Assembly (NCBI GenBank): GCA_003833135.1
Contig: QZLH01000786.1
Span: forward strand, 9,819 to 59,756
Reading direction: 5' to 3'
Length of the DNA: 49,938 nucleotides
Source: Oehlia diaphana
Taxonomy: Eukaryota > Glomeromycota > Glomeromycetes > Glomerales > Glomeraceae
The notes beneath the pieces are model-generated. The model saw only the letters and a list, made by a program, of their open reading frames with translations, had not been told where the DNA came from and ran no database searches. Made by a program: the position numbers and the translations under genes. Shown in pieces: positions 14,510 through 32,295 of this stretch; the first letter of the stretch is position 1, and every line of letters starts with the position of its first letter.

Positions 14510-16115
14510 GCCATTATAAATCACATGACCTCATGACGCATTGGCGAATGTTGGTCCGTTAAATATTGACATTGATTATTTAAGTGATTATTTATTAATA
14601 ATACTTTGGGATGGAATACTATCACAAATTGACATAATATGCGGAATCGTTATATAGGTTATTTAAATATTGAATTTATTTGAAGTAAAAAAATATATTA
14701 ATTGCTTATAAAGTATAATCAATTTTTTTTTAAAAAAAAATATTATATATGTTCTGATAATTTATATTCAGTAACAATATTCTTCCAACATTCACGTTCA
14801 TTAAGGTTCTTCAACCATCTAGAAACATTAGGACGTTTATTCCATAAACCACCTTCGCCAGTAGAGTTAATAGCATAAAAAGTAAGAGGAACATGAAGAA
14901 GATCAGCTAAGGAAAATTCTCCAGTTAAAAAATCTTTACCCTCCAATAATTTTTCATAAACATCTAAATTTTTATCAAGTTCTTCGCGAGCTTCGTTAAC
15001 AATTTTAAGATCAGGTTCATTTCCTTGTTTTTTCACCAATATTAATTGCGTAAGCATTTTAACCAGAGGTTGAGTATAATAAGAGGTCTCTACTGAAATG
15101 AATTGTTCTACCAAAGCGGCTTTTTGTACATCAGAAGGAATAAGAACGGTGGAAGATTTAGTTCCTTGATATTTGTTTATCAAATAACGAGCTATTGCAC
15201 GAGTTTCATAAATTTGGAATCCGTCATCGTTGAGAGAAGGAGTTTTACCGCTATTATAAGAAAAGAAGAAAAAGAATCTAATTAGTAACTTGTGAGTTTC
15301 TGTGACGTATGCGACTTCAGTAAAAGAAAAATTGTTTTTTCACTTACAAAGGATGTTTGGTAGCTAAATAATCTGGAGATTTAATTTCTTCGGGAGTTAT
15401 TTGAACGAGTTCATAAGATAATCCTAATTCTTTAAGGACGTAGAATAATATAAGATTAAAAGCAGATGCAGGACGTCCGAAAACTGTAATAGTCATTTTT
15501 CACTAATTTATTTTATACGATAAAAAAAAAAGGGAAAAGAAAATTTTTTATTTTATTAATTAAAAAAAATTATTTTTAACGATATTTTTGAAATCCTATT
15601 TATAAAGTAATTTGATTCTTTAATTAGTAGAATTTAATTAGTATCTTACACATATACTATCTAGATTTGGGATAATTTTTATAATAATATTCGGAGATTT
15701 TGAGATAATTTAACCGATATTTTTTGTAAGCAGATTAATTAGGAAATATTAATCATAAATCGTGGAATACCAATGATTGATTATTTGTCATACCAACTTT
15801 CCATTGTAAATTAACCAGTAGATATTCGGTAAAATCTATGAATATATTACGAATTTTTTAAATAAGTATCTTTAAATTCGAATCTAAATTACTGTAGCAG
15901 TATAGACAAAAATTATGGCAAAATAAATAATTCATATTTAATAAGCTATTATACAATGAATCTAAGACAAGATGAATTAATCAATTAATTTAATTATCTC
16001 ATTAATAGATAATAGTCACATGTTTCTTTTATTTTAACTAATGCAACTATGCGCTTTATGTCTTATGACCAAAATTATATATTCCGAAAACCAGATTCGG
16101 TAACAAATTTTGCCA
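14510..16115. repeat. Segmental duplication, unit 1 (carries GST copy 2)
   Basis: Non-coding flanks as well as the gene match unit 2 (16240-18080). Shared 3' flank: ccgttaaatattga, attaataatactttggga, gacataat, tgcggaatcg, ttgaatttatttgaagtaaaa. Shared 5' flank: tagatttgg, ataatttaaccgatatt, ttaattaggaaatattaatcataaat, aaattactgtagc, gtcacatgttt and cggtaacaaatttt. The period is about 1.8 kb and the units are head to tail. Confidence 0.75.
14743..15496 (-). CDS. Glutathione S-transferase paralogue (copy 2)
   Basis: Complement of 14743..15250 joined to 15348..15496; 218 residues. The same fold and intron position (phase 2 after KHP) as copy 1. The N-terminal motif is VFGRPASAFNLIL, so the catalytic-loop Ser is kept but STCTLRV has become SAFNLIL. 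The glutathione-site motif is DGFQIYETRAIARYL. In KTPSLNDDG the usual IPVL is replaced by TPSL; the cis-Pro remains. The C-terminal domain keeps FLTGEFSLADLLHVP and the RPNVSRWLKNLNERE end. It lies 0.94 kb from copy 3, same strand, within a tandem duplication. Likely a functional but diverged GST; some such paralogues act as ligandins or peroxidases, which cannot be decided here. Confidence 0.87.
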
Positions 16116-16433: not shown

Positions 16434-18080
16434 CTACTTATCAGAATCTTTAGTATATTTACTAATTTGTTCTGATAATTTATATTCATCAACAATATTT
16501 TTCCAACTTTCACGTTCGCTAAGGTTCTTCAACCATTTAGAAACATTGGGACGTTTATTCCATAAATCACCTTCACCAGCAGAGTTAATAGCATAATAGG
16601 TAAGAGGAAGATGAATAATATCAGCTAAAGAAAATTCCCCAGTTAAATAATCTTTACCCTCCAATAATTTTTCATAAACATCTAAAGCCTTCCCAAGCTC
16701 TTCACGAGCTTCTGCAACAATATTAAGATCAGGTTCATTGCCTTGTCTTCTCACCGCTATTAATTGCATAAGCAATTTAAATAGAGGTGGAAAATAATAA
16801 GAGATCTCTACTGAAATGAATTGTTCTACCAAAGCGGCTTTTTGTACATCAGAAGGTATAAGAACGGTGGAAGTTTTGGTTCCCTGATATTTATTTGCCA
16901 AATAACGAGCTATTGCACGAGATTCGTAAATTTGGAATCCGTCATCGCTAAGAACAGGAGATTTACCGCTATTAAAAGAAAAGAAGGGAAAGAATCAAAT
17001 TAGTAACTTGTGAAGTATCTGTGACGTATGTAATTTCAATGAAAGAAATTTTTTTTTTCACTTACAAAGGATGTTTGGTAGCCAAATATTCTGGAGTTTT
17101 AATATCTTCGTGGGTTGTTGGAACGTTTTCAAAAGATAATCCTAATTCTTTAAGGACGTAAATTAAGACTAGAGTGAAAGGAGATGCAGGGGCTCCGATA
17201 ACTGTAATAGTCATTTTTCACGAATTTTTTTTTACAACAAAAAAAGGGAAAAAGAAAATTGTTTATTATTATATTTTTTTTTTTTGAAAAATATATTTTA
17301 ATTGAAAATTCGACAAGGTATTTTTTGAAACGTATTTATAAAGAAACTTGATCTTAAATTATTATAAGAATTCGGTCTAAGGGGGAATTTATTTTGATTT
17401 GAAATCATTTTTTTTTTTATGATTCACAACATTAATTATTCTACGCAGTATTCTTTCTTTTTTTACCTAGATTTGGATAGTTTAAAATACATTCACCCGG
17501 TTTCCCGATAATTTAACCGATATTCTAAATTAATTAGGAAATATTAATCATAAATTGGGGAACACCGCAATAAATCACTCAGGAAGTCACATGCCGAGAC
17601 ATGCCGAGACATTTCCGAGAAACTCCCACCAAGCCAATCTATGAACAAATTACGAACTTATTGAATTTAATTTAATTTATTAATAGACGTCCCTAAATAT
17701 TTTTAAATTTGAATCTTAATCTAAATTACTGTAGCGGTGTAGACAAAATTTTCTTTTCTGTTAAAATAAAATAATTCATATTTAAATAAACTAATATGCA
17801 GATGAGTATGATGAATCAAACTTCATATCTTGAATCGTTTTAAACATACTCCATTTATATACTGTATAATTACCTCATTTAATAAACTTGCATTATGACT
17901 ATTCCCAATTCCTACCACTCTAAACTATTAAAAAATTAATAGATCATAGTCACATGTTTAACTTATGCAACTAAAAAGAACTACATGCAGTATATTTACC
18001 AAAATTAAATAATAAGATGCTTTGCTAGTTTGCTTCCCGCACTTGAATAGATTTCGGTAACAAATTTTCGAGTGCTCGTA
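16240..18080. repeat. Segmental duplication, unit 2 (carries GST copy 3)
   Basis: Partner of the unit at 14510-16115; see the shared flanking words listed there. Non-coding identity is clearly lower than coding identity by eye, so the duplication is not recent. Confidence 0.75.
16434..17214 (-). CDS. Glutathione S-transferase paralogue (copy 3)
   Basis: Complement of 16434..16968 joined to 17066..17214; 227 residues. Same exon plan as copy 2 (first exon 149 nt, phase-2 intron). The N-terminal motif VIGAPASPFTLVL keeps the loop Ser; the glutathione site is DGFQIYESRAIARYL after GKSPVLSDD. The C-terminal domain keeps YLTGEFSLADIIHLPLTYY and RPNVSKWLKNLSERE, then runs about 10 residues longer than copy 2 (SKYTKDSDK), which looks like read-through into the former 3' flank. 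A cytosolic detoxification or redox role is expected for the family. Confidence 0.88.
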
Positions 18081-19820: not shown

Positions 19821-19940
19821 GAACAAAAGTTATGGTTCTTTACAAATGTTTCAATTATATCATAAAGAAATAATTACATGAAAACGCTTTTATTGTACGT
19901 TATAATGGAATTCATAACCTTTGAATTTTTCTTATAAATA
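19821..19940 (+). promoter_or_regulatory. Core promoter of ubiquitin-like gene A
   Basis: A TATA box TATAAATA at 19933-19940, about 125 bp before the ATG, sits in a context (ttttctTATAAATAgagaata, then tttcttgctttaagcaaaaa) shared with copies B and C. An upstream block gaacaaaagttatgg (19821-19835) is also shared. Conservation across three paralogues supports a real promoter. Confidence 0.65.
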
Positions 19941-20061
19941 GAGAATAGTTTTTTCTTGCTTTAAGCAAAAATCAAACTTTTCGAATCATAAATAATAAAT
20001 AAAATAAAGAACAATCAAATTAAAAAAACAAGCAGTGATAACCTTAAAATATTCTATAAAC

Positions 20062-20409
20062 ATGAAAATCATCATTCGAGCCTGTCAAACTTTTGGAAGA
20101 AATATGTATAGTATTGAGGTCGAAAATTTCGACCAAATTTCATCTGTTAAACAGAAAATATCTGACAAAACAAGTAAATGAAAATTATTTAATTATTTAT
20201 TATTATTATAATGTCCTACGCGCTTCGCTCCGGACAAAAATAAATTTTACTCACCTAAAAAAATTTTTTTTTCTTTAGATATTGATTGTAATAATAAATG
20301 TTTAATGTTTAATAATAGACAGCTAATTCAAGAGATTAAATCGCTGTCTGATTATGAAATTAAACATGAATCCACCCTTCATTTAAGATGTGGACAATAC
20401 GGTTGTTAG
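20062..20409 (+). CDS. Divergent ubiquitin-like protein, copy A
   Basis: Exons 20062..20173 and 20279..20409; 80 residues. It aligns with ubiquitin over its whole length: the second beta strand (MYSIEVENFD), the helix (VKQKISDK), CLMFNNRQL in the LIFAGKQL position, and LSDYEIKHESTLHL in the LSDYNIQKESTLHL position. The first hairpin loop is three residues longer. Instead of LRLRGG it ends RCGQYGC and stops, so no diglycine exists and no residues follow to be trimmed. Of the ubiquitin lysines, K27 and K29 equivalents are kept; K48 and K63 positions are Arg and His. Copy A differs from B and C by Tyr for the first Cys of the final CxC. Its intron carries a short GC-rich hairpin repeat (20212-20236). 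Function unknown. Confidence 0.8.
20212..20236. repeat. Short GC-rich palindromic repeat inside the copy A intron
   Basis: A 25-bp tgtcc...ggaca hairpin with core gcgcttcgctccgg. A near copy lies at 33588-33610 (tgtcc, ttcgtttcgctcc, ggaca). It is absent from the introns of copies B and C, so it was gained by copy A. It resembles the small dispersed palindromes reported in Rhizophagus DNA. Confidence 0.7.
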
Positions 20410-22569
20410 GGTTGTTAATAGATTTACTGATTTAGATTCTTAAATTATTCTTAGATTTGATTCATTTATTTATAAATGTTATTATCAAGTTATTTACCTT
20501 TCAAACAAGCATTTATTTTCATTATAATGTAATTTATTTTTATTTTATTCATCTAATAATAAAAAATTATTTTTTTTTAATCAATAAACATGGATAATTT
20601 TGTAATCTATGGAAAGAATGTTGATGTCTGGACATTATGTCGAATATGTACATATATGAAATTGATATCTTAAACTCGATCAGATTCAAAATCAATTTTT
20701 AAGCATGTTTTGAGCAAATAAAAAAAATACACTTGAGCTTCGAACCATTTAATTACTCATCAAGCTTTACACAACCTCTAGAGATACTAATACAAATATC
20801 ATATATCATATACAGTATGTCACACGAACCATCTGGGTCAATTATTCTTCTTAAACATCACATATAAAACCGCGCTCACAAAACGGAGATGCAAAAAAAA
20901 TGTATATTTCACATCACTTGAACAATGTGAAAAATCGTGTAAATGAATACGTCTTATATTTTGCGTATACATAAGACTGTTTCATCCTTTACAAAAGTTC
21001 ATCTTAAAGAAATTTTTCCGTTGCTACAGAGGAAAAATATGCCTCCGCGAAAGAGAAAAAATACTACAGAATCGGAATTCGGAAACAACAAAGAAGCTTT
21101 GAGCAACCATAAACACAAAGAAGACGGAATATTCATCTAATGAAAAATTAATTCAAACACGCTTTTAAACCTTGGCCCAAATTTAATGTCATTCATTCCG
21201 ACTCCAAGCTCTGCTCAACCACCATTCCCACTCATGATACAAATGTTACTCCCTCAATCCCAAACACCAGTCACAATTCGGACAATTCACAAACGATGGA
21301 CCTATGTTAAAAATTATACATACAAGCAGTTTTCAACACAATTAAACGACAATAATAACCCTGATCTTGACTCCCATACAAAAGAGTAATCTCGACGGAA
21401 AATGCAAGAAACCAGAAAATGCTGCTAGTACATCAATATCATCAAATAAGCATCAAAAAAACCTCATGCAACAAGGATCAAACAAGTAGACATCGTTCGT
21501 ATAGGAGAAACGATGAAAATAATAATATAAGTGTATGGCTTCTGCTTACATAGTGTGTATGAAACTGAAGTTACGCGGTCACTAGGAACGGTGGGTGGTA
21601 CAATGATCTGAGATCATCTTGTGTGATGAGAAGGTGAGGTTGTTTGAGTACTCATTCCAAAACTGCGAAGAAATATAGCATGTGATGAATAGGTTTCTTG
21701 CAAATAAAGAATTAGAAAATGTATTTGAATTAAAAGTTATAGAAATTCTAGACTCCAAAGGAATCAATTCGTATGGTTAAACCTGATGATAATAATTCGA
21801 TAAATACAGTTACAAATTCTGGTTATACATTTAAAAGCGCCGAAGCAAGTAAAAAGAATAATATTAACGAAGACGATAATAATTATATACATTAATCAAT
21901 TATAGAAAAATTTATATAAATTCAGGGAGTATAGTAATCAATGGTTCATGTATTATAAAAATCGAAAATTTTAGATTTTAAATAAAGATTTTAAATAACA
22001 AAGATGTTTTTATTAATAATATATGTATATAATTGAAGCTAAGGGTAAAAAAATTTAAACTATTTATACATATAAACATATAAAGTACGAACGACCATCC
22101 ATTAATTAAACAGATTAACAAATATGGTTCAATGACTGGTAAGTTTATTACATTTTATCTTGATTTGTATATATTTCTTTCTTCTATTTTTTTTTTAGTA
22201 TAACAATAAAAAAACATTTCATCATCATTCAAAACATAGCAATAAGAAAATAATATAATGAATTGTGGCATATCAGTTGATGATAAAAAACCATAAACAC
22301 ATTTTTCTTTACATTTTACACATTGAATTTATTTAAAAAAAAGTAACTTTGATTAAAAAGGAATATACTCCGGCACATAAGAGGGGTTGTTTTATAGTTG
22401 TTAATTTCCCATTACTTATATACATGAGAAATTAGTGAATCGGTATAGCCAGATTCTTTCTATTTGTAGATATCTTAATCTTTATTGGTACAGACAAAGT
22501 ATTAAAATTATTAAAAATAAAAACGTGTGGTTCCATGATATAAACTCGTTAACGTAAAAGAGAACATCA
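20410..22569. other. Gene-poor region with decayed frames
   Basis: Holds the 3' flank of copy A (aacaagcatttatttt shared with B and C). At 21039 a frame starts MPPRKRKNTTESEFGNNK, a basic nuclear-protein-like N-terminus that stops after 33 residues; further short frames follow at 21186-21389 (Pro/Thr-rich). These may be pieces of one broken gene, not recognised. The remainder to 22,569 shows nothing definite. Confidence 0.4.
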
Positions 22570-23455
22570 TCACTTTTTGATAAATTTTTTGATTCTAACC
22601 CTCTTGCTAGCTGCAGAACTATCATCAACACTAACACGATCCTTCAACAACCCAACAACACGTTGCTTCGATGTACTTCGATGAGATTAATTTGGTACTC
22701 GTTACCGCTTGCATCTAGAGTATACATAGTAAAATGCCACTCCGTTCCTGTCGACACAATACCATATAGATAGTCGAAATAATCGTTCCCAAACGCTTGA
22801 TCAGCAGTTCGGTTTTCTTATTTGTTTGGAATGCACTCTCAAATTGCGCCAGATTCTAAAAAATAAAATGCGTTAAAATTATTGAATCTTCAAAAACACG
22901 AATCTGAGTAGTAGTCTTACTGCGTATATCCAATCTTAATATTACGAGGCTTTCCTTAAGGAGGTCTTCTAGAGCTTTGATTTCGACCGGTTGAATCTTC
23001 TCCTGAATATCCTTCTGCAACACTATAGTAATATCTTGGGAAGTGATTTTTTTAGTGATGGCGATTGATGCGCGTAATATTGCTGAAATAAATTCACAAC
23101 GTGTCGCCTCGTTAGCATTGGTCATGGTTTCCACATTAGAATTATATCGTCCATGTAATGACTAAAAGCTTGTCATCATCATTAATTTCCTCGAAGACTG
23201 CGAAAGAAAACATAAATTATTATATCTACGATGAACCATTCCAGAGAGGAGTAAAAATAAGAAGTAATTACTTGAGAAAGGCATGACCAGAAATTTTCTC
23301 CTTACGAAGAATTTTGATATTATCAAGTCTTTTCTTTGCAAATATTCGACAAGTTCTTCTGTATCCAGACCCTTAACAACGGCCGCTATTATTCGAGAAG
23401 GAATTTCTTCTGTAATTGAACTTGGAGAAGAAGGTGTAGAGGCTTGTGAAGACAT
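22570..23455 (-). pseudogene. Broken member of a SAM-domain-like fungal family
   Basis: The minus strand opens at 23455 with MSSQASTPSSPSS, then IPSRIIAAVVKGLDTEELVEYLQRKD. After a one-base shift it continues NIKILRKEKISGHAFL, the signature of a SAM-like helical domain, and reaches a GTAATT donor. Later exons carry TNANEATRCEFISAILRASIAI, IKALEDLLKESL, NLAQFESAFQTNKK, and in shifted frames YFDYLYGIVSTGTEWHF and a final DRVSVDDSSAASKRVRI ending at 22570. From memory this is a multi-copy Rhizophagus family of unknown role, some members being associated with effector-like or signalling proteins. At least three frame breaks mark this copy as a pseudogene. Confidence 0.6.
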
Positions 23456-24387
23456 GGTTTTTATATATGTATGCACCCGACAGGTGTATTTTTTTTTTGC
23501 TTCCGAGGTAAGGCACGCTCAGATAATGAAGAGATTTTTTTGTATCAGCTAATGTATTTACCTCATATATATGCAATTAAGATGTAGTATAGAATTTTCA
23601 ATCGATTATATTACATCACTACACGTGACCTGCTTTCTCGATAAAATAATACTTTTATTCGCACATACTGCACATACTGTATAATGATTTTGCGGGAAAG
23701 TTGGCTGAACTTCCACATACTCCTACACGCTTTATATCTTGCTGGGAAAAAAGATAAGGAGATAAGAAGAGTGATTAGCATAATCGTATGATGCCAAGAA
23801 AGCTTTGTAAGCACATGTACGTGGAATTTTGATTTCTTCTGGCATAGCGATCTCCACGTAAGACACAAAGTTGGTTAACTCGTGTAGATCTCAAAATTAC
23901 AAGGTTCTCAGCCCTTCATAATACATAAATATTATTACTAATATCGATAAGAAATACCATGTACTTCCCTTTTACAGCGTGCTTGGGTTTCATTTTGCGA
24001 TTGTTCTCAATGTAAAAGCATCACGAATAAATATATATGCGAAAATTAATGTCACACAATTTAAAAAATTTCTTCCGAGCTGATGATCACTGCTCCGGTT
24101 GTTGAGGACTCGAATTTTCCACATTAAATATATTTTAAATATATTACTTTATTATAGCAATCATGGCAAGTAATATTAATAATAAATCTGATCAAAGCGA
24201 AACACTTGCTCAATTATATGAAATGCTTTTATATAAGAAGGATAACATCCCTCCAGATCAAGATATTTTAAATTAAAGACACGAACTAGCAATTTCTTCG
24301 ATAGTTACATCGGTAATTTTACAAAAGCTAAGGTTAAACAAGATGCTGGAACCCTGGGCAAGAACGAATAACATTTCGAATCGATAT
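23456..24387. other. Intergenic, decayed fragments
   Basis: A + strand frame from 24163 reads MASNINNKSDQSETLAQLYEML and stops after about 37 residues. A further piece, KAKVKQDAGTLGKNE, can be read near 24330 in another frame. It looks like the 5' part of a decayed multi-copy gene. The rest shows no gene. Confidence 0.4.
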
Positions 24388-24745
24388 TTATGGCGATTTC
24401 ACGTAGGCCATTATCATTTCCAGTCGATAATTGTATGATTCTGCTATTAGCTTTAGAGCTTTACCAGTAAGATCTATACTTTTTTCGGAATCTAAATGGA
24501 TTATATTTGGAAACATGCGCACAATGCCTTTGATTCTTTTATTTGAAAGTGAACGGTAGTGTAATATTTTAAGATGTGCTAGATTCGAGCAATAAATTGG
24601 TTTCACCCAACGTACTACTTTTAAAAAATCTTTTCAATTGATAGTGTTCCTTTGCAGAATAATCATCTTGAACACATATAATGGGATATAAGTCACCCCA
24701 TCCAACTTGATGCGTTTCCATAGAATGGGAGCATTACTTCTATCT
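24388..24745 (-). pseudogene. F-box/LRR protein fragment
   Basis: The minus strand contains LWKRIKLDG (a post-F-box segment, about 24720) and, after a stop, CSNLAHLKILHYRSLSNKRIKGIVRMFPNIIHLD followed by GKALKLIAESYNYRLE, the irregular LRR pattern of fungal F-box proteins. Both ends are missing and a stop interrupts it. Confidence 0.55.
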
Positions 24746-24759
24746 AGATCAAAGGGTAG

Positions 24760-24856
24760 TGATTGGATTATAGAGTGGTAATCAGGTTATAGAATGGTAA
24801 TTAGATTAAGAGTGGTACTATAACGGTATAACCTAATCTAAGCGGTATCCCACTCC
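24760..24856. repeat. Inverted/direct repeat block truncating ubiquitin-like copy D
   Basis: Contains repeated gagtggtaatc/gaatggtaatt/gagtggtac words and an inverted pair gagtggtac (about 24811) and gtatcccactc (ending 24855). Its right end coincides with the point where similarity of copy D to the other ubiquitin-like genes stops. It is a candidate foldback insertion or a rearrangement junction. Confidence 0.55.
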
Positions 24857-24892
24857 TCCGTACGATTGACAAGTTCGAACGATAACTTTCAT
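24855..24892 (-). pseudogene. Truncated ubiquitin-like gene, copy D (5' end only)
   Basis: On the minus strand from 24892 the frame reads MKVIVRTCQSYGG, matching the first 13 codons of copies B and C. Similarity then ends abruptly at about 24855 in a repeat block. No trace of the rest of exon 1 or of exon 2 is found nearby. The 5' leader (ttcaaataatttattccaaa, then ccttcaaatactataaa) matches copies B and C closely, so this is a genuine family member cut off by an insertion or deletion. Confidence 0.75.
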
Positions 24893-24996
24893 TTTATAGT
24901 ATTTGAAGGCTTTTGGAATAAATTATTTGAATTTTTATTATTATTGTTTTATTTATTTATTTATTTTTGATTTTAATGCTTTTTGGTTTTGTTCCC

Positions 24997-25030
24997 TATA
25001 TAAGAATAAACAAGTCATTGAATTCTATGA
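24997..25030 (-). promoter_or_regulatory. Promoter remnant of ubiquitin-like copy D
   Basis: On the minus strand, catagaattcaatga, cttgtttattc and TATATAgggaacaa match the promoter of copy B (gaattcaatgccttg, TATATATAgggaacaa). The TATA element is at 24997-25002, about 105 bp before the ATG at 24892. An apparently intact promoter now reads into an F-box fragment on the same strand. Confidence 0.65.
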
Positions 25031-25069
25031 ACGTAAGATGTTTTATAAGCGTTCATTGTCTATTTGTTA

Positions 25070-27170
25070 ACGATATATTAAATAGAAACTTTATACTACT
25101 AGCTCCGATACAGATGATACGAGCCCGAATGAAAAATGGGTAAAATAGAAAATCAAGGTTAGTAATTACAATGATAACGGAGTTCTTCGTACTATATTCG
25201 TAGTATTTTACTTTTTTGACCTCTCCCATATCTGTTGAAGCCGTAACTGCCTCTATCTGAGTTCGAATAATTCTGTGAATTAGGAAAACTTATGAAGTTT
25301 GCGGGTCTTTGCGCTAAAAGAATTTATTTAACATACGATTTTTTTTAACAGACATAAAAATTATTTATAATTATTATGATCAATAAATGCATGCTTCTGA
25401 AGTTGTACATGGAAAAGGCCTGTTGGCTAAGCAAAAATGAAAACGGGTAGCGGCGTTTTAAAAGAGAATAAAGTATGAAAAATATGCCTGCGACTTTTTG
25501 AAAAATGATATAAAAATATTTATGACTTAATATTGCTAAAGAAATTGCACGTAATAGAGAAGGTGAATGTCTTTTGAAAATTGCCAATAGTAAGGCTTCA
25601 ATGCTCTAGAAATGCGCTAAGGATGTGAAGAATGGAAAAACATGGTGCCCATGATATGCAGTTGAAAATCATCGTGCACCAGTGGTTATAGCTATCCTCG
25701 CAAAGGAGAATTTACTGTATTTGATTAGATGGCTAATTGATGATAAACTCGCGATTCGATTAAGACTATACCTTTGAAATAGATCATGCCAAAAACATAA
25801 ATAGAAATGTACTATCTTCCATCATTCATCGAATGTCAGAACTTGAGAAAAGATGAATCGATGAAGTTGTAATAATATCATCCCAGCTCATTCCCGAATA
25901 CTTGATGTATAAATAATTCAATACGTTATATTTTTTCTTTTCATTTTTTTCTTTATCAATTGACTAGAACTGAAAAAGAGGCATATAGTTAAAACGAACT
26001 CGGATGATTTAGAATCTTAACGCATGAATAAATTTTGTTTATTGTTACAATGAGCATTTCATATTATTCATATTACAAGAGTTGAGAAGGTGTTTTAGAA
26101 GATATATAAAGGGAGTGTTATATTTTCCTTTACCATTTGCTTGTCTTTGGTTTTGCTAAATTTCTATCCAATTTAATAAAAATTATCCATTATAATATCA
26201 TATCACTATTGCTTTAAGATAAAATGATATGTAAAATTTGCAAATGGAAAAGTTTTAAAAGTAACTATATATCTTGAACCACTAACAAACAAAATCGGTA
26301 AAGTTAAACCAAAAATTAATCTCTTCATAATAAGTAGCATTCAGATATGTTTAAAGCTTCGTAAGATAAGAATATAATTGCGATCGAAAAAAAAGGTATA
26401 GATAACAAACGAAGCAAAAGCAGCAGGTAGTAAAACATTAGGTTCTACTTTGGAAATATTTCCGTTTTTATCTTAGTCAAAGTATATTGAAACTTTCTCA
26501 TTCAAGGTTAGATTTGATCCAGTAGCTTTCAGATAGTTCGAATTAATTGAAGACAAACCACAGAAATTTTGTTGAGTTTGGTATAGTTATTTTAAAGGAT
26601 TTGTAAACTTCTTCACAAATATAAGTTTTCGGGATCCATGTTCTACCATGAAGTGACCATTTATTGTTTTTTCGCTTTGGCAAACATCAAGGCAATCAGG
26701 AAATTTTTTCCACTTAAAATCCACATGGAAACCCACATCAAATATTGCGGAAATATGTGGAAAATCTGAATAGTTCCAATATTTCCACAGTATTTTCGGC
26801 ATAGATCGAAGGTTAAAATATGTATGTATGGAATTTCACATGTTTCTAAACTAATCCATATGGATTACATGGACCGGTCTGCCCAAAAATCTCATGAAGA
26901 AACAATGATTTTTAGATACAATACCACATATTTCTGAACTAATCCATATCAGATATGGATTTACGTTCACTTTTATTTCTTAAAAGCAATATCATTTACA
27001 ACGACGCTTTTGTTGATCAACATAATATTAATTAACATATTAGTTTATAATTATCCGCAGCAATATGCGGTTTTTGAATTTCGGAGTTGATATAATAACA
27101 ATATAACAATGCCGCAGATTTGCGTAAATTTCCGATTAAAGTTTTTACTATATTTATTTGTTCGATATTT
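25070..27170. other. Gene-poor region
   Basis: Several short frames exist but none shows a recognisable domain. A + strand stretch near 25760-25920 reads EIDHAKNINRNVLSSIIHRM plus more in one frame and may be a decayed gene. Around 26690-26780 and 26850-26960 are self-complementary words (ttccac...gtggaa; aatccatatggatt). No feature is called. Confidence 0.35.
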
Positions 27171-27301
27171 CAACAAAAGCTATCTTTATGGCGTCTCTTT
27201 TTTTTTTAAAAACAAGTAAATGTGAGATTACAATGTGAAAAATGACATCACAAATAGACAATGAATCATAGAATTCAATGCCTTGTTTTTTCTTATATAT
27301 A
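27171..27301 (+). promoter_or_regulatory. Promoter of ubiquitin-like gene B
   Basis: Shared elements in order: caacaaaagctat (27171), TGACATCA (27243-27250, one base from the CRE octamer), gaattcaatgccttg and the TATA box TATATATA at 27294-27301 followed by gggaacaattttttct. The ATG is at 27434, about 135 bp downstream. Confidence 0.7.
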
Positions 27302-27433
27302 GGGAACAATTTTTTCTTTCTATCAAGCTAAAAAAAAACCAAAAGCATTCAAATCAAAAATAAATAAATAAATTAATAATAATAAAAGAAACTTTAAATA
27401 ATTTATTTAAAAAAACCTTCAATTACTATCAAA

Positions 27434-27773
27434 ATGAAAGTTATCATTCGAACTTGTCAATCATTCGGAGGAAATATGTATAGCGTAGAAGTTGAAGATT
27501 TCGATCAAATATCAGCTGTTAAACGAAAAATATCTGACAATACAGGTAATTAAAACTACGAATTATTATTATTATTTATAATAAATTAAATAAATTTAAC
27601 TCAAAATTTTTTATCATTATTATTATTTTTTTCTTTTTTTAGATATTGATTGTAAAAATAAAAGTTTAATATTTAATAACAGACAGCTAATTCAAGAGAT
27701 GAAGTCGCTATCAGATTATGAAATTCAAAATGAATCCACTCTTCATTTGAGATGTGGACAATGCGGTTGTTAA
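27434..27773 (+). CDS. Divergent ubiquitin-like protein, copy B
   Basis: Exons 27434..27545 and 27643..27773; 80 residues, phase-1 intron exactly where copies A and C have it. Ubiquitin fold: MKVIIRTCQSFGGNMYSVEVE (first hairpin), AVKRKISDN (helix start), SLIFNNRQL (I44 region kept), LSDYEIQNESTLHL, then the tail RCGQCGC. Aligned to ubiquitin, V70 becomes Arg, G75 is kept and the terminal G76 becomes Cys. So classical E1 activation and isopeptide transfer through a C-terminal Gly look impossible. Eight residues of the protein could form thiol chemistry or bind metal only in the tail and at C8 and C41. The final CGC is a C-x-C ending, the form used by doubly prenylated Rab proteins; that parallel is speculative. 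Confidence 0.85.
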
Positions 27774-28906
27774 GATCGATGATTTAGATTTAGAATCTTA
27801 AATTATTTTTAAAATTGATTTTTTTTTACATTACAAGTCATTTAACCTTTAGACAAGCATTTATTTATATTACAATGTATTTTTTTTTTTATTTGTCAAT
27901 AAAGAAACATCATATATTAATTTGCAATAAATACAATATATTCAAGTAATTGTTGGATTGTGTGTTCATAGCCTTAATTTATATTACATTGTCACGATCA
28001 AAAAAACTACACGTTTGTTATTTTTATAAAGAACATTTACTATATACCAATTCGATCAATATATATGAAAAATTTCAGTTAATATTGTATGCTATTATTA
28101 TGAAAATTATACAGTCATACTCTCTAACTCCCCATTTTATACTGAGAGCGAGTTTTCTAATTATTATGAGTATAAAGGCAAAGTTGTTATATTTTAATCT
28201 CGGTTAAGGTAATTTTCTCATGCTTGCAAAAATATGCGCGTATCGCAATTTCATATGGTTTCATGAATTCTGAAGTTCATGTAAATTGGTTACATTTCAA
28301 AAATTTTATTACAATTTCAGAAATTATACAGGTCGATAGTCACGTGAGTGCATTTAGGGAAAACCCTTCATATAAATGTACTTAAAAAATCGTTGTACCG
28401 ATAGAATATGGAAGGTGTACATTTAACATTAAGTCCCAACTTGGGACCAAGCGAAAAGGTGCAATTATAGAGGGTGTGCATTTATAGAGGGTGCATTTAT
28501 AGAGAGTTGATTAACTGTATTCATAATCCATGTTTTGCTGTCTTTAACTGGATTTTATTACTTATATATATATATATAATTCTTCGAAAGAGAATCGGTA
28601 ATTACAATTATAACCTCTCACCTGTCTGGTTACTACCCCAATATTTCAATTATAAAACGCTCCTTTAAGTATAAAGAATGCACCGTACGATTTGTACAGT
28701 ATTGTCAACACTTTGTACTAATTTCATAATCATCAACCCATAGTGGTGTGATTATAGGAGTTGTGAATCAAGCCAGCCGAACCAAAATGGAAATAATACA
28801 TAGATTCAATTAAACAATAGCCATCGGTTATTGTAGAACTGCATTAGGAGTTGATCAACATAATAACAAAATTACAGAAAATTACCATATTTGTTTGTTT
28901 CGATTT
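27774..28906. other. Spacer between ubiquitin-like copies B and C
   Basis: The first 120 bp are 3' flank shared with A and C (gacaagcatttattta). At 28433-28447 is gtcccaa-c-ttgggac, a perfect 15-bp palindrome, followed by a direct repeat gtgcatttatagagggt at 28470-28510. Open frames at 27950 and 28474 have no recognisable content. Confidence 0.5.
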
Positions 28907-29035
28907 GAACAAAAGCTATGGCGTTCTTTTTTATCAAAGTAGATAGTGTATTATAATGTGAAAAATAACATCACAAAAGACGATGATCACTTAAACATTT
29001 TCATTGTGTGTTCATGAGGACTTTTCTTATATATA
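28907..29035 (+). promoter_or_regulatory. Promoter of ubiquitin-like gene C
   Basis: Shared elements: gaacaaaagctatg (28907-28920), taacatcac (28966), TATA box TATATATA at 29028-29035 inside ttttctTATATATAgg, then aattttttcttgctattaag. The ATG is 124-131 bp further on. Order and spacing match gene B. Confidence 0.7.
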
Positions 29036-29158
29036 GGAGAATAATTTTTTCTTGCTATTAAGCAAAAACCAAATCACTTCCAATCAAAAAAAAAATAAAT
29101 AAATTAATAAAAGAAAATTCAAATAATTTATTTCAAAAAACCTTTAATTATTATCAAA

Positions 29159-29486
29159 ATGAAAGTTATCGTTCGAACTTGTCAAATATACGGAGGAAAT
29201 ATGTATAAAGTAGAGGTTGAAAATTTCGATCAAATTTCAGCCATTAAACGAAAAATATCTGACAATACAGGTAATTAAAAGTGTGAAATTTTTAATTATT
29301 ATAACAAACTAAGTAAATTTTATTCACATAAAACTTTTTTATTATTATTTTTTAGATATCGATTGTGAAAATAAAAGTTTAATATTTAATAATAGACAGC
29401 TAATTCAAGAGATGAAATCGTTATCGGATTATGAAATTCAACATGAATCCACTCTTCATTTAAGATGTGGACAATGTGGTTGTTAA
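29159..29486 (+). CDS. Divergent ubiquitin-like protein, copy C
   Basis: Exons 29159..29270 and 29356..29486; 80 residues. It is closest to copy B: changes include I5V, S10I, F11Y, S17K, D22N, V29I, K42E and N67H, while the second exon is nearly identical and the tail RCGQCGC is unchanged. The gene lies 1.7 kb downstream of B in the same orientation and 0.85 kb upstream of a BTB-TLDc gene. Intact frames, equal exon lengths and mostly conservative replacements across A, B and C argue that the family is under selection to be translated. Localisation and targets cannot be read from the sequence; there is no signal peptide or membrane segment. Confidence 0.85.
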
Positions 29487-30337: not shown

Positions 30338-32295
30338 ATGACTGATAAATTTTTACCACAATTATCACAAAATCTACTAAATATTTTAGATGATGACGAA
30401 TATTATGATATTACTATTGAAGTTGGTAGTGACCCTTACGTTAAAATATTTCGAGCTCATATGGTTATTTTAAATTATCGTTCCGCTTATTTGAGGAGAA
30501 TGTTATCAACAAATAAAAAACATCTTGATGGAACTTTGGTACATCTCAGATTACCAAATATTTTACCTGAAGCTTTTCATGTGATTTTAAGGTAAGAAAG
30601 ATGTACATTTACATCTATTCTATTTATTTTATTTAATTTAATTTCAAACAAACGTTTTATTTTAGGTATATTTATGGTGGTAGACTTTCTTTAGAAAACT
30701 ATGACATATCAGATATTATTCAAATCTTGGTCGCTGCAGATAAACTTTGTCTTCAAGAGCTAGTTATCCATTTACAATCTTCTTTGATAGAAAACAATAC
30801 AAATTGGATGGAAGAAAACCTTGATTTGGTCTATAAAACAAGTTTTGAGAATATTTCTTTCTTGGAACTACAAAATTATTGTACTGATTTAATTTCAAAA
30901 GAACCAGATAAGATATTTAAGTCACCAAATTTTTCTTCAGTACCAGAAAAACTTTTGATTTCACTTATTAAAAATGATAATCTTCAAATGGACGAGGTAC
31001 AAATTTGGGAACATGTGCTTAAATGGGGATTTGCTCAGCATCCCGAACTTCCACCTGATCATACCACCCTTTCAAAGGATGAATTAAATGTTTTAAAAAA
31101 TACCTTACAGCAATGTATTCCTTTCATTAAATTCTTTAATTTATCTTCTAGAGAATTTTCTGATAAAGTATTACCTTACAAAAAAGTTTTACCAAAAGAA
31201 TTGAAAAAAGAGCTTGTAAATTATTTTTGGGATCGTAATATTGAATCAAAATCTCGTGTAAATAAAGAGGTTAAACCAGTGAATCAGTCAGTATCTCAAA
31301 CGAATAAAGAATCTCAATCAGAATCTCAGGAGATTCAATCAGTATCTCAGACAAACAAAGAATCTCAATTAAAATCTCAGGCGAGTCAATCAGAATCTCA
31401 AACGAATAAAGAATCTCAATCAGAATCTCAGGCAAATCAAATAGAATCTCAAACGAATAAAGAATCTCAATCAGAATCTCAGGAGATTCAATCAGTATCT
31501 CAGACAAAAAAAGAATCTCAATTAGAATCTCAGGCGAATCAATCAGAATCTCAGACGAATAAAGAATCTCAATCAGAATTCCAGACAAATCAATCAGAAC
31601 CTCAGGAGAATAAAGAATCTACACCGGAATCTCAGGCAAATCAATCAGAGCCTCAGATTAACAAAGGATCTCAATTAGAATATCAGGCGAATAAAGAACC
31701 TCAATCGGAATTACAAACAAATGGAGAAACTTCATCTCGCGAAAATAAAGAAATAAAGTCAATTATTGATTCAAAAATTATTACAAATAAACATGCTGAA
31801 TTAATTTCGGGATGGTTTTACAGACCTTCATTATTTAGCTGGGTTTATAAATCAAATTATTATAGATTCAAATTATTATTTCGTGGATCTCGTGATGGAT
31901 TTACACCTTCTAACTTCCATCAGATTTGTGATAATCAAATATCTACTGTAATGATTATTAAAGTAAAAGGTAGTAACGAAATTCTTGGAGGATATAATCC
32001 AATTGCATGGAATCAGAATTATAGCAATGGTGTTACTAAGGATAGTTTTATATTCTCTTTTGAGAATAAAGATAATATTGAAAATTACATTTTGAGTCGT
32101 GTAAAAGATGAAACCTCCGCTATAAAGAATAGTAAATATTGCGTTCCATCATTTGGTGAAAGTGACCTTTTATTATCGGGATTTGATTATCGTTATAGTT
32201 ATTGTAAAAAAGAATCATATGAAAAACCGATCAGAAATACTGAAGATACATTTTCTGTGGAAGAATTTGAAGTATTTAAAATTATAAAAGATTGA
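30338..32295 (+). CDS. BTB-BACK-TLDc protein with 17-residue repeats
   Basis: Exons 30338..30591 and 30666..32295; 627 residues. BTB domain at about 20-125 (YYDITIEVG, FRAHMVILNYRSAYLRRML, LPNILPEAFHVILRYIYGG), BACK domain at about 130-235 (FLELQNYCTDLI, PEKLLISLIKNDNLQMDEVQIWEHVLKWG), a repeat linker at 292-427, and a TLDc domain at about 450-625 (HAELISGWFYR, YRFKLLFRGSRDGF, GGYNPIAWNQ, FIFSFEN). BTB-BACK proteins usually recruit substrates to Cul3 ubiquitin ligases; TLDc domains are linked to oxidative-stress protection and V-ATPase binding. This combination is a greatly expanded family in arbuscular mycorrhizal fungi. The linker is eight head-to-tail copies of a Gln/Ser/Glu-rich 17-mer, unusual for the family and probably length-variable between strains. 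Confidence 0.9.
31285..31692 (+). repeat. 51-bp coding minisatellite, eight copies
   Basis: Eight in-frame 51-bp units encode QSVSQTNKESQSESQEI-type 17-mers; 8 x 51 = 408 bp exactly. The repeat also opens a long frame on the other strand (31271-31588), a shadow. Units 1-2 and 4-5 share EI/SV variants in the same order, which suggests growth by duplication of a three-unit block. Confidence 0.92.

What the first reader, a model, noticed from the sequence alone, without database searches (positions are those of the whole stretch)
20062..29486. A cluster of ubiquitin-fold genes with a cysteine tail instead of diglycine
Three intact two-exon genes and one truncated copy within 9.5 kb encode 80-residue proteins alignable to ubiquitin from end to end (LSDYEIQ.ESTLHL matches LSDYNIQKESTLHL), with +3 residues in the first loop and +1 before LSDY. 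The tail reads RCGQCGC or RCGQYGC. I know of no described ubiquitin-like modifier with this ending. Identical exon lengths and intron phase, intact frames and shared promoters indicate a live gene family.
Basis: partly seen in the sequence, partly recalled or inferred. Interest (0 to 1): 0.93.

Follow-up and report, generated by a model that had tools for sequence, protein, structure and literature searches.

The report
Cysteine-tailed ubiquitin-derived proteins in a mycorrhizal fungus
An arbuscular mycorrhizal fungus carries a small family of genes descended from ubiquitin in which the diglycine tail used to attach ubiquitin to other proteins has been replaced by cysteines, so these proteins probably keep ubiquitin's shape but no longer work as ordinary ubiquitin tags.

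Summary
Three intact two-exon genes (20062-20409, 27434-27773, 29159-29486) encode 80-residue proteins alignable to ubiquitin end to end; a fourth, on the minus strand, stops after 13 codons. The predicted fold is ubiquitin's; dN/dS among copies is 0.18-0.26. Relatives were seen only in Rhizophagus and Glomus cerebriforme records and two unnamed ORFs.

It shows that the tail is ubiquitin's own, in register (VLRLRGG / ACRLRGC / RCGQCGC), with L71 and G76 both cysteine, plus cysteines at ubiquitin positions 8 and 38. These four are in 7 of 7 complete members. The intron has the position and phase of one in this genome's polyubiquitin genes. The window copies also lack E1-contact arginines, K48 and K63.

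Best reading: a ubiquitin duplicate turned into a non-conjugatable protein whose cysteines tie the tail to the body (metal or disulfide; untested). Cysteine-ended ubiquitin-fold proteins are in print (UBL3/MUB; Bacteroides BfUbb), so the ending has precedents. New variant of a known kind.

The parts
20062..20173 (+). copy A exon 1
20174..20278 (+). copy A intron (phase 1, GTAAAT..TTTAG)
20279..20409 (+). copy A exon 2 with stop; tail RCGQYGC at 20386-20406
27434..27545 (+). copy B exon 1
27546..27642 (+). copy B intron
27643..27773 (+). copy B exon 2 with stop; tail RCGQCGC at 27750-27770
29159..29270 (+). copy C exon 1
29271..29355 (+). copy C intron
29356..29486 (+). copy C exon 2 with stop; tail RCGQCGC at 29463-29483
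24854..24892 (-). copy D, truncated: first 13 codons (MKVIVRTCQSYGG) of an exon 1
   Evidence: tblastn and blastn; sequence
24893..25030 (-). copy D upstream region, homologous to the upstream regions of B and C
24741..24824 (-). dispersed repeat 29 bp beyond the break in copy D (7 further partial matches on 6 other contigs)
19927..19946 (+). TATA-like box of copy A, 135 bp before the ATG
27288..27307 (+). TATA-like box of copy B, 146 bp before the ATG
29022..29041 (+). TATA-like box of copy C, 137 bp before the ATG

Best explanation
These are paralogs of ubiquitin that arose in the Rhizophagus lineage from an intron-bearing ubiquitin gene. Shown: ubiquitin relationship by sequence and predicted fold; the same phase-1 intron as two polyubiquitin genes; a paralog (P) that is still 70% identical to ubiquitin; four shared cysteines at ubiquitin positions L8, P38, L71 and G76 and a +3 loop next to the first; loss in the window copies of R42, R72, R74, K48, K63 and V70; purifying selection among the copies. 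Inferred: the proteins cannot be activated by E1 and do not form ordinary chains. The four cysteines act together inside one molecule, holding the former conjugation tail against the first loop and the end of the helix, either through a bound metal such as zinc or through disulfides (8 with 71, 38 with 76). The result would be a free-standing ubiquitin-fold protein with a fixed tail that works by binding partners, possibly under redox or metal control.
For: C8, C41, C75 and C80 (window numbering) are in 7 of 7 complete members (A, B, C, P0001, P0002, P, P0037) although P and window copy B share only 39 of 79 residues. Of 19 residues derived and fixed in P and P0037, 10 persist in all 5 window-clade proteins compared, and these include 4 of 4 cysteines (p about 0.05, weak). 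The tails align without gaps: VLRLRGG / ACRLRGC / RCGQCGC. In the second paralog Q the cysteines at 8 and 71 are both absent while those at 38 and 76 are both present, as two pairs would behave. The fifth cysteine (C78) is tyrosine in copy A, so it is not part of the set. Ubiquitin L8, I36, L71 and L73 form one surface patch, and residue 38 lies next to 74 in strand register (recalled, not measured). E1-contact arginines and chain lysines are lost. dN/dS 0.18-0.26.
Against: No model coordinates were available, so no sulfur-sulfur distance was measured. The last three residues of the P0001 model, and residues 78-91 of the P0037 model, have pLDDT below 50: the models show a loose tail, not a clasp (they model no metal). 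The 8/71 and 38/76 pairing rests on one paralog, Q, whose 3' end is unsettled and whose alignment has a gap around position 8. A cytosolic protein would rarely keep disulfides; metal binding is only an idea. One R. irregularis record (P0003) has a tail equal to copy C's with one base missing, which removes C80, so that cysteine is dispensable in that record or the record is in error. No transcript or protein evidence.
Confidence: 0.42

Rival explanations
1. Intermolecular thiol modifier: the C-terminal cysteines form disulfides with target proteins, as suggested for UBL3/MUB.
For: UBL3 has two C-terminal cysteines on which its modification depends; its authors suggest disulfide bonding (PMC6158211 passages). 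Fungal UBL3 orthologues have CCAAX or CXCAAX ends (PMC10511055 passages), and B and C end in CGC.
Against: No AAX after the cysteine; no PF13881 match at E <= 0.001; does not explain the body cysteines at 8 and 38; copy A ends YGC.
Confidence: 0.15
2. [quoted passage not shown] Most likely for paralog P, not for the window copies.
For: BfUbb has a C-terminal cysteine, keeps many E1-contact residues, inhibits ubiquitination in vitro and forms a covalent complex with human E1 under non-reducing conditions (PMC3352274 passages). P keeps R42, I44, K48, R72 and R74 and has G76C.
Against: Window copies have lost R42, R72 and R74. P has one residue (K) after the cysteine. Other cysteines unexplained.
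Confidence: 0.13
3. Membrane anchor: the CGC end is doubly prenylated by the Rab-type geranylgeranyl transferase, giving a membrane-anchored ubiquitin fold that works like MUB.
For: -CXC is a Rab-type prenylation end (recalled); B, C, P0001, P0002 and P0004 end in CGC.
Against: Copy A ends YGC, P ends GCK; Rab prenylation needs an escort protein that recognises the Rab body (recalled).
Confidence: 0.1
4. Relaxed ubiquitin duplicates without a fixed function, on their way to decay.
For: Truncated copy D; frameshifted tail in an R. irregularis record; the genome holds many divergent ubiquitin-like stretches, some with stops (75 matches at E <= 0.01).
Against: dN/dS 0.18-0.26 with Fisher p 1e-3 to 6e-6; intact frames and splice sites in three copies; two 80-aa orthologues annotated in R. 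clarus; cysteines kept through about 50% divergence.
Confidence: 0.12

Closest known systems
Ubiquitin (PF00240), polyubiquitin genes of the same genome
   Same: Fold end to end; phase-1 intron at G35; ungapped tail register; Pfam PF00240 above cut-off
   Different: G76 and L71 are cysteine; +3 loop, +1 before LSDY; window copies lack R42, R72, R74, K48, K63; single unit, no extension after residue 76 in the window copies
Paralog P on another contig (G000:C153) and its Glomus cerebriforme relative P0037
   Same: Four cysteines and +3 loop in both; P has exon lengths 112 and 131, the same intron phase and 80 aa
   Different: They keep ubiquitin's R42, R72, R74, K48 and K63, read RLRGCK at the end (P0037 reads on to 91 aa), and lack the +1
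UBL3 / MUB (membrane-anchored ubiquitin-fold proteins)
   Same: Ubiquitin fold with C-terminal cysteines instead of diglycine
   Different: UBL3 has a CAAX box, is prenylated and belongs to Rad60-SLD_2 (PF13881; family assignment recalled); window proteins match PF00240, have no CAAX, and have two body cysteines
BfUbb of Bacteroides fragilis
   Same: Ubiquitin homologue with a C-terminal cysteine where ubiquitin has glycine
   Different: BfUbb has a signal sequence and is found in bacterial culture supernatant, and keeps many E1-contact residues; window copies have lost R42, R72 and R74 and carry three further conserved cysteines

Membership tests
Ubiquitin (conjugatable modifier) | ubiquitin fold and sequence | tested here: met
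Ubiquitin (conjugatable modifier) | C-terminal Gly-Gly | tested here: not met
   G75 kept, position 76 is Cys in A, B, C, P0001, P0002, P, P0037
Ubiquitin (conjugatable modifier) | E1-contact arginines R42 and R72 (role recalled) | tested here: not met
   S or C at 42 and G at 72 in the window copies; both arginines kept in P
Ubiquitin (conjugatable modifier) | chain lysines K48 and K63 | tested here: not met
   R at 48 and N or H at 63 in the window copies; K27 and K29 remain
UBL3/MUB | Rad60-SLD_2 domain PF13881 | tested here: not met
   not among matches at E <= 0.001 for A, B, C and P; a whole-genome PF13881 search was inconclusive, its 14 controls found nothing
UBL3/MUB | C-terminal CAAX box | tested here: not met
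   proteins end at CGC or YGC
UBL3/MUB | cysteine-dependent modification of targets | not testable with these tools
   needs non-reducing gels
BfUbb type | cysteine at the position of G76 | tested here: met
BfUbb type | E1-contact residues conserved | tested here: not met
   R42, R72 and R74 lost in window copies, kept in P
BfUbb type | signal sequence for export | not tested
   no predictor was run; the ubiquitin fold starts at residue 1
SUMO / Rad60-SLD | PF11976 as best family | tested here: not met
   PF11976 23.2 (A, below its cut-off of 23.8), 24.9 (B) and 26.5 bits (C) against 45-47 bits for PF00240
Rab-type prenylated proteins | CC or CXC C-terminus | tested here: inconclusive
   CGC in B, C, P0001, P0002, P0004; YGC in A; GCK in P

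The most novel reading that the evidence does not exclude
Ubiquitin has been rebuilt in arbuscular mycorrhizal fungi into a metal- or disulfide-clasped protein: its conjugation tail is locked to its own body by four cysteines, with one surviving intermediate (P) that still carries ubiquitin's E1 and E2 face and could switch between clasped and open forms.
Probability: 0.3. Interest if true: 0.7.

Novelty: new variant of a known kind. Interest (0 to 1): 0.52.

Why it matters
Ubiquitin is among the most conserved eukaryotic proteins. Here ordinary ubiquitin, a possible intermediate (P) and derived copies (A, B, C) sit in one genome, so the steps from conjugated tag to non-conjugated protein can be tested one by one. 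It adds a four-cysteine, fungal case beside UBL3 and BfUbb, which raises the question of whether cysteine tails are a repeated way out of the ubiquitin pathway. A caution: this genome has many divergent ubiquitin-like stretches (75 matches at E <= 0.01 with P), so a divergent duplicate as such is not surprising here; the shared cysteines are.

Tried and rejected
Prenylated CXC end as the main reading: not kept in copy A or in P. SUMO or Rad60-SLD membership: weaker than ubiquitin. Viral origin: one scan of viral contigs with P0001 matched 29 stretches by pattern and confirmed none as a relative (this mode finds close relatives only). A ubiquitin-like fragment near 26240, seen by eye and noted, is dropped: tblastn with ubiquitin and the family did not list it. 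A possible decayed exon 2 of copy D at 23665-23573 (minus) has E 0.09-5 with the four family queries and is not claimed. UBL3/MUB in this genome: the PF13881 search had no ringing control and says nothing. The bacterial promoter scan is not informative for a fungus. Expression: no data; a paper search for the R. clarus locus tags gave 0 papers.

Papers on ubiquitin families in these fungi: I saw listings (titles and abstract starts) of 15 of 1,354, 3 of 3, 12 of 54 and 12 of 85 papers; none listed is, by title and abstract start, about this family, and two papers were looked at by passages only. So 'not described' rests on these, in open-licence PMC papers only.

The gene tree puts the 4 ubiquitin rows apart from the 10 cysteine-family rows (95/95) and holds the 7 window-clade rows together (100/100), but does not resolve P, P0037 and Q; 6 of 11 inner branches are open and Q is a long branch.
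Full report
WHAT IS THERE. The window lies in a 108.8-Mb, 1,672-contig assembly. Copy C is identical over 76 of 76 residues to an R. irregularis record (P0003), so the source is probably R. irregularis or close kin. Copies A, B and C have exons of 112 and 131 nt around a phase-1 intron of 105, 97 and 85 nt and encode 80 residues. A fourth copy, D, is on the opposite strand: homologous upstream sequence and 13 codons; 29 bp beyond the break lies a dispersed repeat with 7 further partial matches on 6 other contigs. Upstream regions align across A, B and C and, nearer the start codon, D, with a TATA-like box 135-146 bp before the ATG in A, B and C.

SELECTION. Nei-Gojobori dN/dS: A-B 0.18, A-C 0.26, B-C 0.21; against P 0.28-0.54, where dS is 0.8-1.6 and unsure. 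Fisher tests of the counts give p 6e-6, 4e-4, 1e-3. Gene conversion among the copies is not excluded.

WHERE ELSE. A search of 5.8 billion proteins with copy B gave 4 proteins: two from R. clarus with neighbouring locus tags (RclHR1_01600016 and 01600017, 80 aa, 91% identity) and two from R. irregularis. A search with P gave 7,964 proteins, of which only the best 120 were listed, almost all of these ubiquitin or polyubiquitin; of the 124 proteins then in hand only P0037 from Glomus cerebriforme (a Rhizophagus by current naming, recalled) was new and carried the loop and both tail cysteines. A family search with the ubiquitin-common parts masked gave 7 proteins among 10 candidates: those 4, P0037 and two unnamed ORFs that hold an exon 1 only (P0125, P0126). 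Nothing outside this group was seen, but the search needs shared 5-residue words and a relative could hide among the unlisted ubiquitins. The P0003 tail equals copy C's with one base missing, and P0004 has a different annotated start.

THE KEY RELATIVE. The own-genome search found a two-exon paralog P on contig C153, with exons 112 and 131, the same phase and 80 aa, sharing 54 of 77 residues with ubiquitin and 39 of 79 with copy B. Its tail is ACRLRGCK. P0037 is its closest relative (64 of 80 residues compared; the annotated protein reads on to 91). The window tail is therefore not an unrelated ending but ubiquitin's V70-G76 in register, with L71C and G76C. The other two shared cysteines fall on ubiquitin L8 and P38, the first beside the +3 loop. 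All four are in 7 of 7 complete members. Rows left out of that count: P0003 (has three, lacks C80), P0004 (annotated start differs; has the other three), P0125 and P0126 (exon 1 only; both have C8), and Q. Paralog Q lies about 0.6 kb downstream of P with the same intron; it keeps cysteines at 38 and 76 and lacks both 8 and 71; its 3' end is unsettled. Of the 44 loci beyond the window genes (L007-L050, some overlapping) read, those whose match reaches position 76 mostly end in GG, divergent ones included, and only P and Q have a cysteine there; several matches stop short. Further matches (75 in all at E <= 0.01) were not fetched.

ORIGIN. The intron lies in the codon of ubiquitin G35, phase 1, in the two polyubiquitin genes examined (C59, C1110), as in A, B, C, P and Q. 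In the tree the 4 ubiquitin rows part from the 10 cysteine-family rows with 95/95 support. A single duplication of an intron-bearing ubiquitin gene, then cysteine gain, then (in the window clade) loss of the ubiquitin surface is the simplest account; this order is inferred.

WHAT IT CAN NO LONGER DO. In the window copies R42 is S or C, R72 is G, R74 is C or Y, V70 is R, K48 is R, K63 is N or H, K11 is N; K27 and K29 remain. E1 and chain functions of these residues are textbook knowledge, recalled. P keeps R42, I44, K48, K63, R72 and R74.

HOW IT MAY WORK. Positions 8, 71 and 36-38 are neighbours on the ubiquitin surface (recalled), and the tail can reach them. Four cysteines kept while half the protein changed, and a loss of two together in Q, suggest they act with one another; a fixed tail is the simplest use. 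Whether by metal or by disulfide is open; there is no measured distance, no predicted clasp, and only one case of paired loss. The share of cysteines among retained derived residues gives p about 0.05.

COMPARISON. UBL3/MUB and BfUbb show that a ubiquitin fold ending in cysteine is a known kind (passages read, not whole papers). The window family is a member of neither: no PF13881 match, no CAAX, no retained E1 face. BfUbb came to notice through a structural match to a Bacteroides ubiquitin-like C-terminal cysteine mutant (8hm2, row 30).

VERDICT. A real gene family of ubiquitin-derived, four-cysteine proteins, conserved among Rhizophagus records and, as far as searched, found only there; a new variant of a known kind; function unproven.

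Noticed in passing
L027:1198-1680 (+), contig C82: Single-exon 160-residue open frame made of two ubiquitin folds ending ARLPGGF, a layout like ISG15 (PF00240 in two stretches). Similar pairs ending in GG plus one or two residues are in L033, L035 and L042.
   Followed up: partly
L019:1486-2200 (+), contig C258: Ubiquitin unit ending LCLRGG followed in frame by more protein; the next presumed exon weakly matches the PARP catalytic domain (PF00644, E 0.004, below cut-off). L026, L032, L036, L037, L044 and L048 look similar after their GG (by eye).
   Followed up: partly
L031:399-711 (-), contig C153: Paralog Q: ubiquitin-like, of the four family cysteines only those at 38 and 76, no +3 loop, reading on past the cysteine (CKKCPSR) to a possible second 5' splice site.
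   Followed up: partly
P0003 (R. irregularis record): Tail RCGHVVVKKNI equals the copy C tail with one base missing: a frameshifted allele or a record error.
   Followed up: partly
window 30338-30595 and 30808-32295 (+): BTB-like open frames with a long SQ-rich repeat stretch next to the cluster (family name by eye).
   Followed up: no
window 14743-15057 and 16434-16769 (-): Two similar open frames resembling the C-terminal half of glutathione S-transferases (by eye).
   Followed up: no
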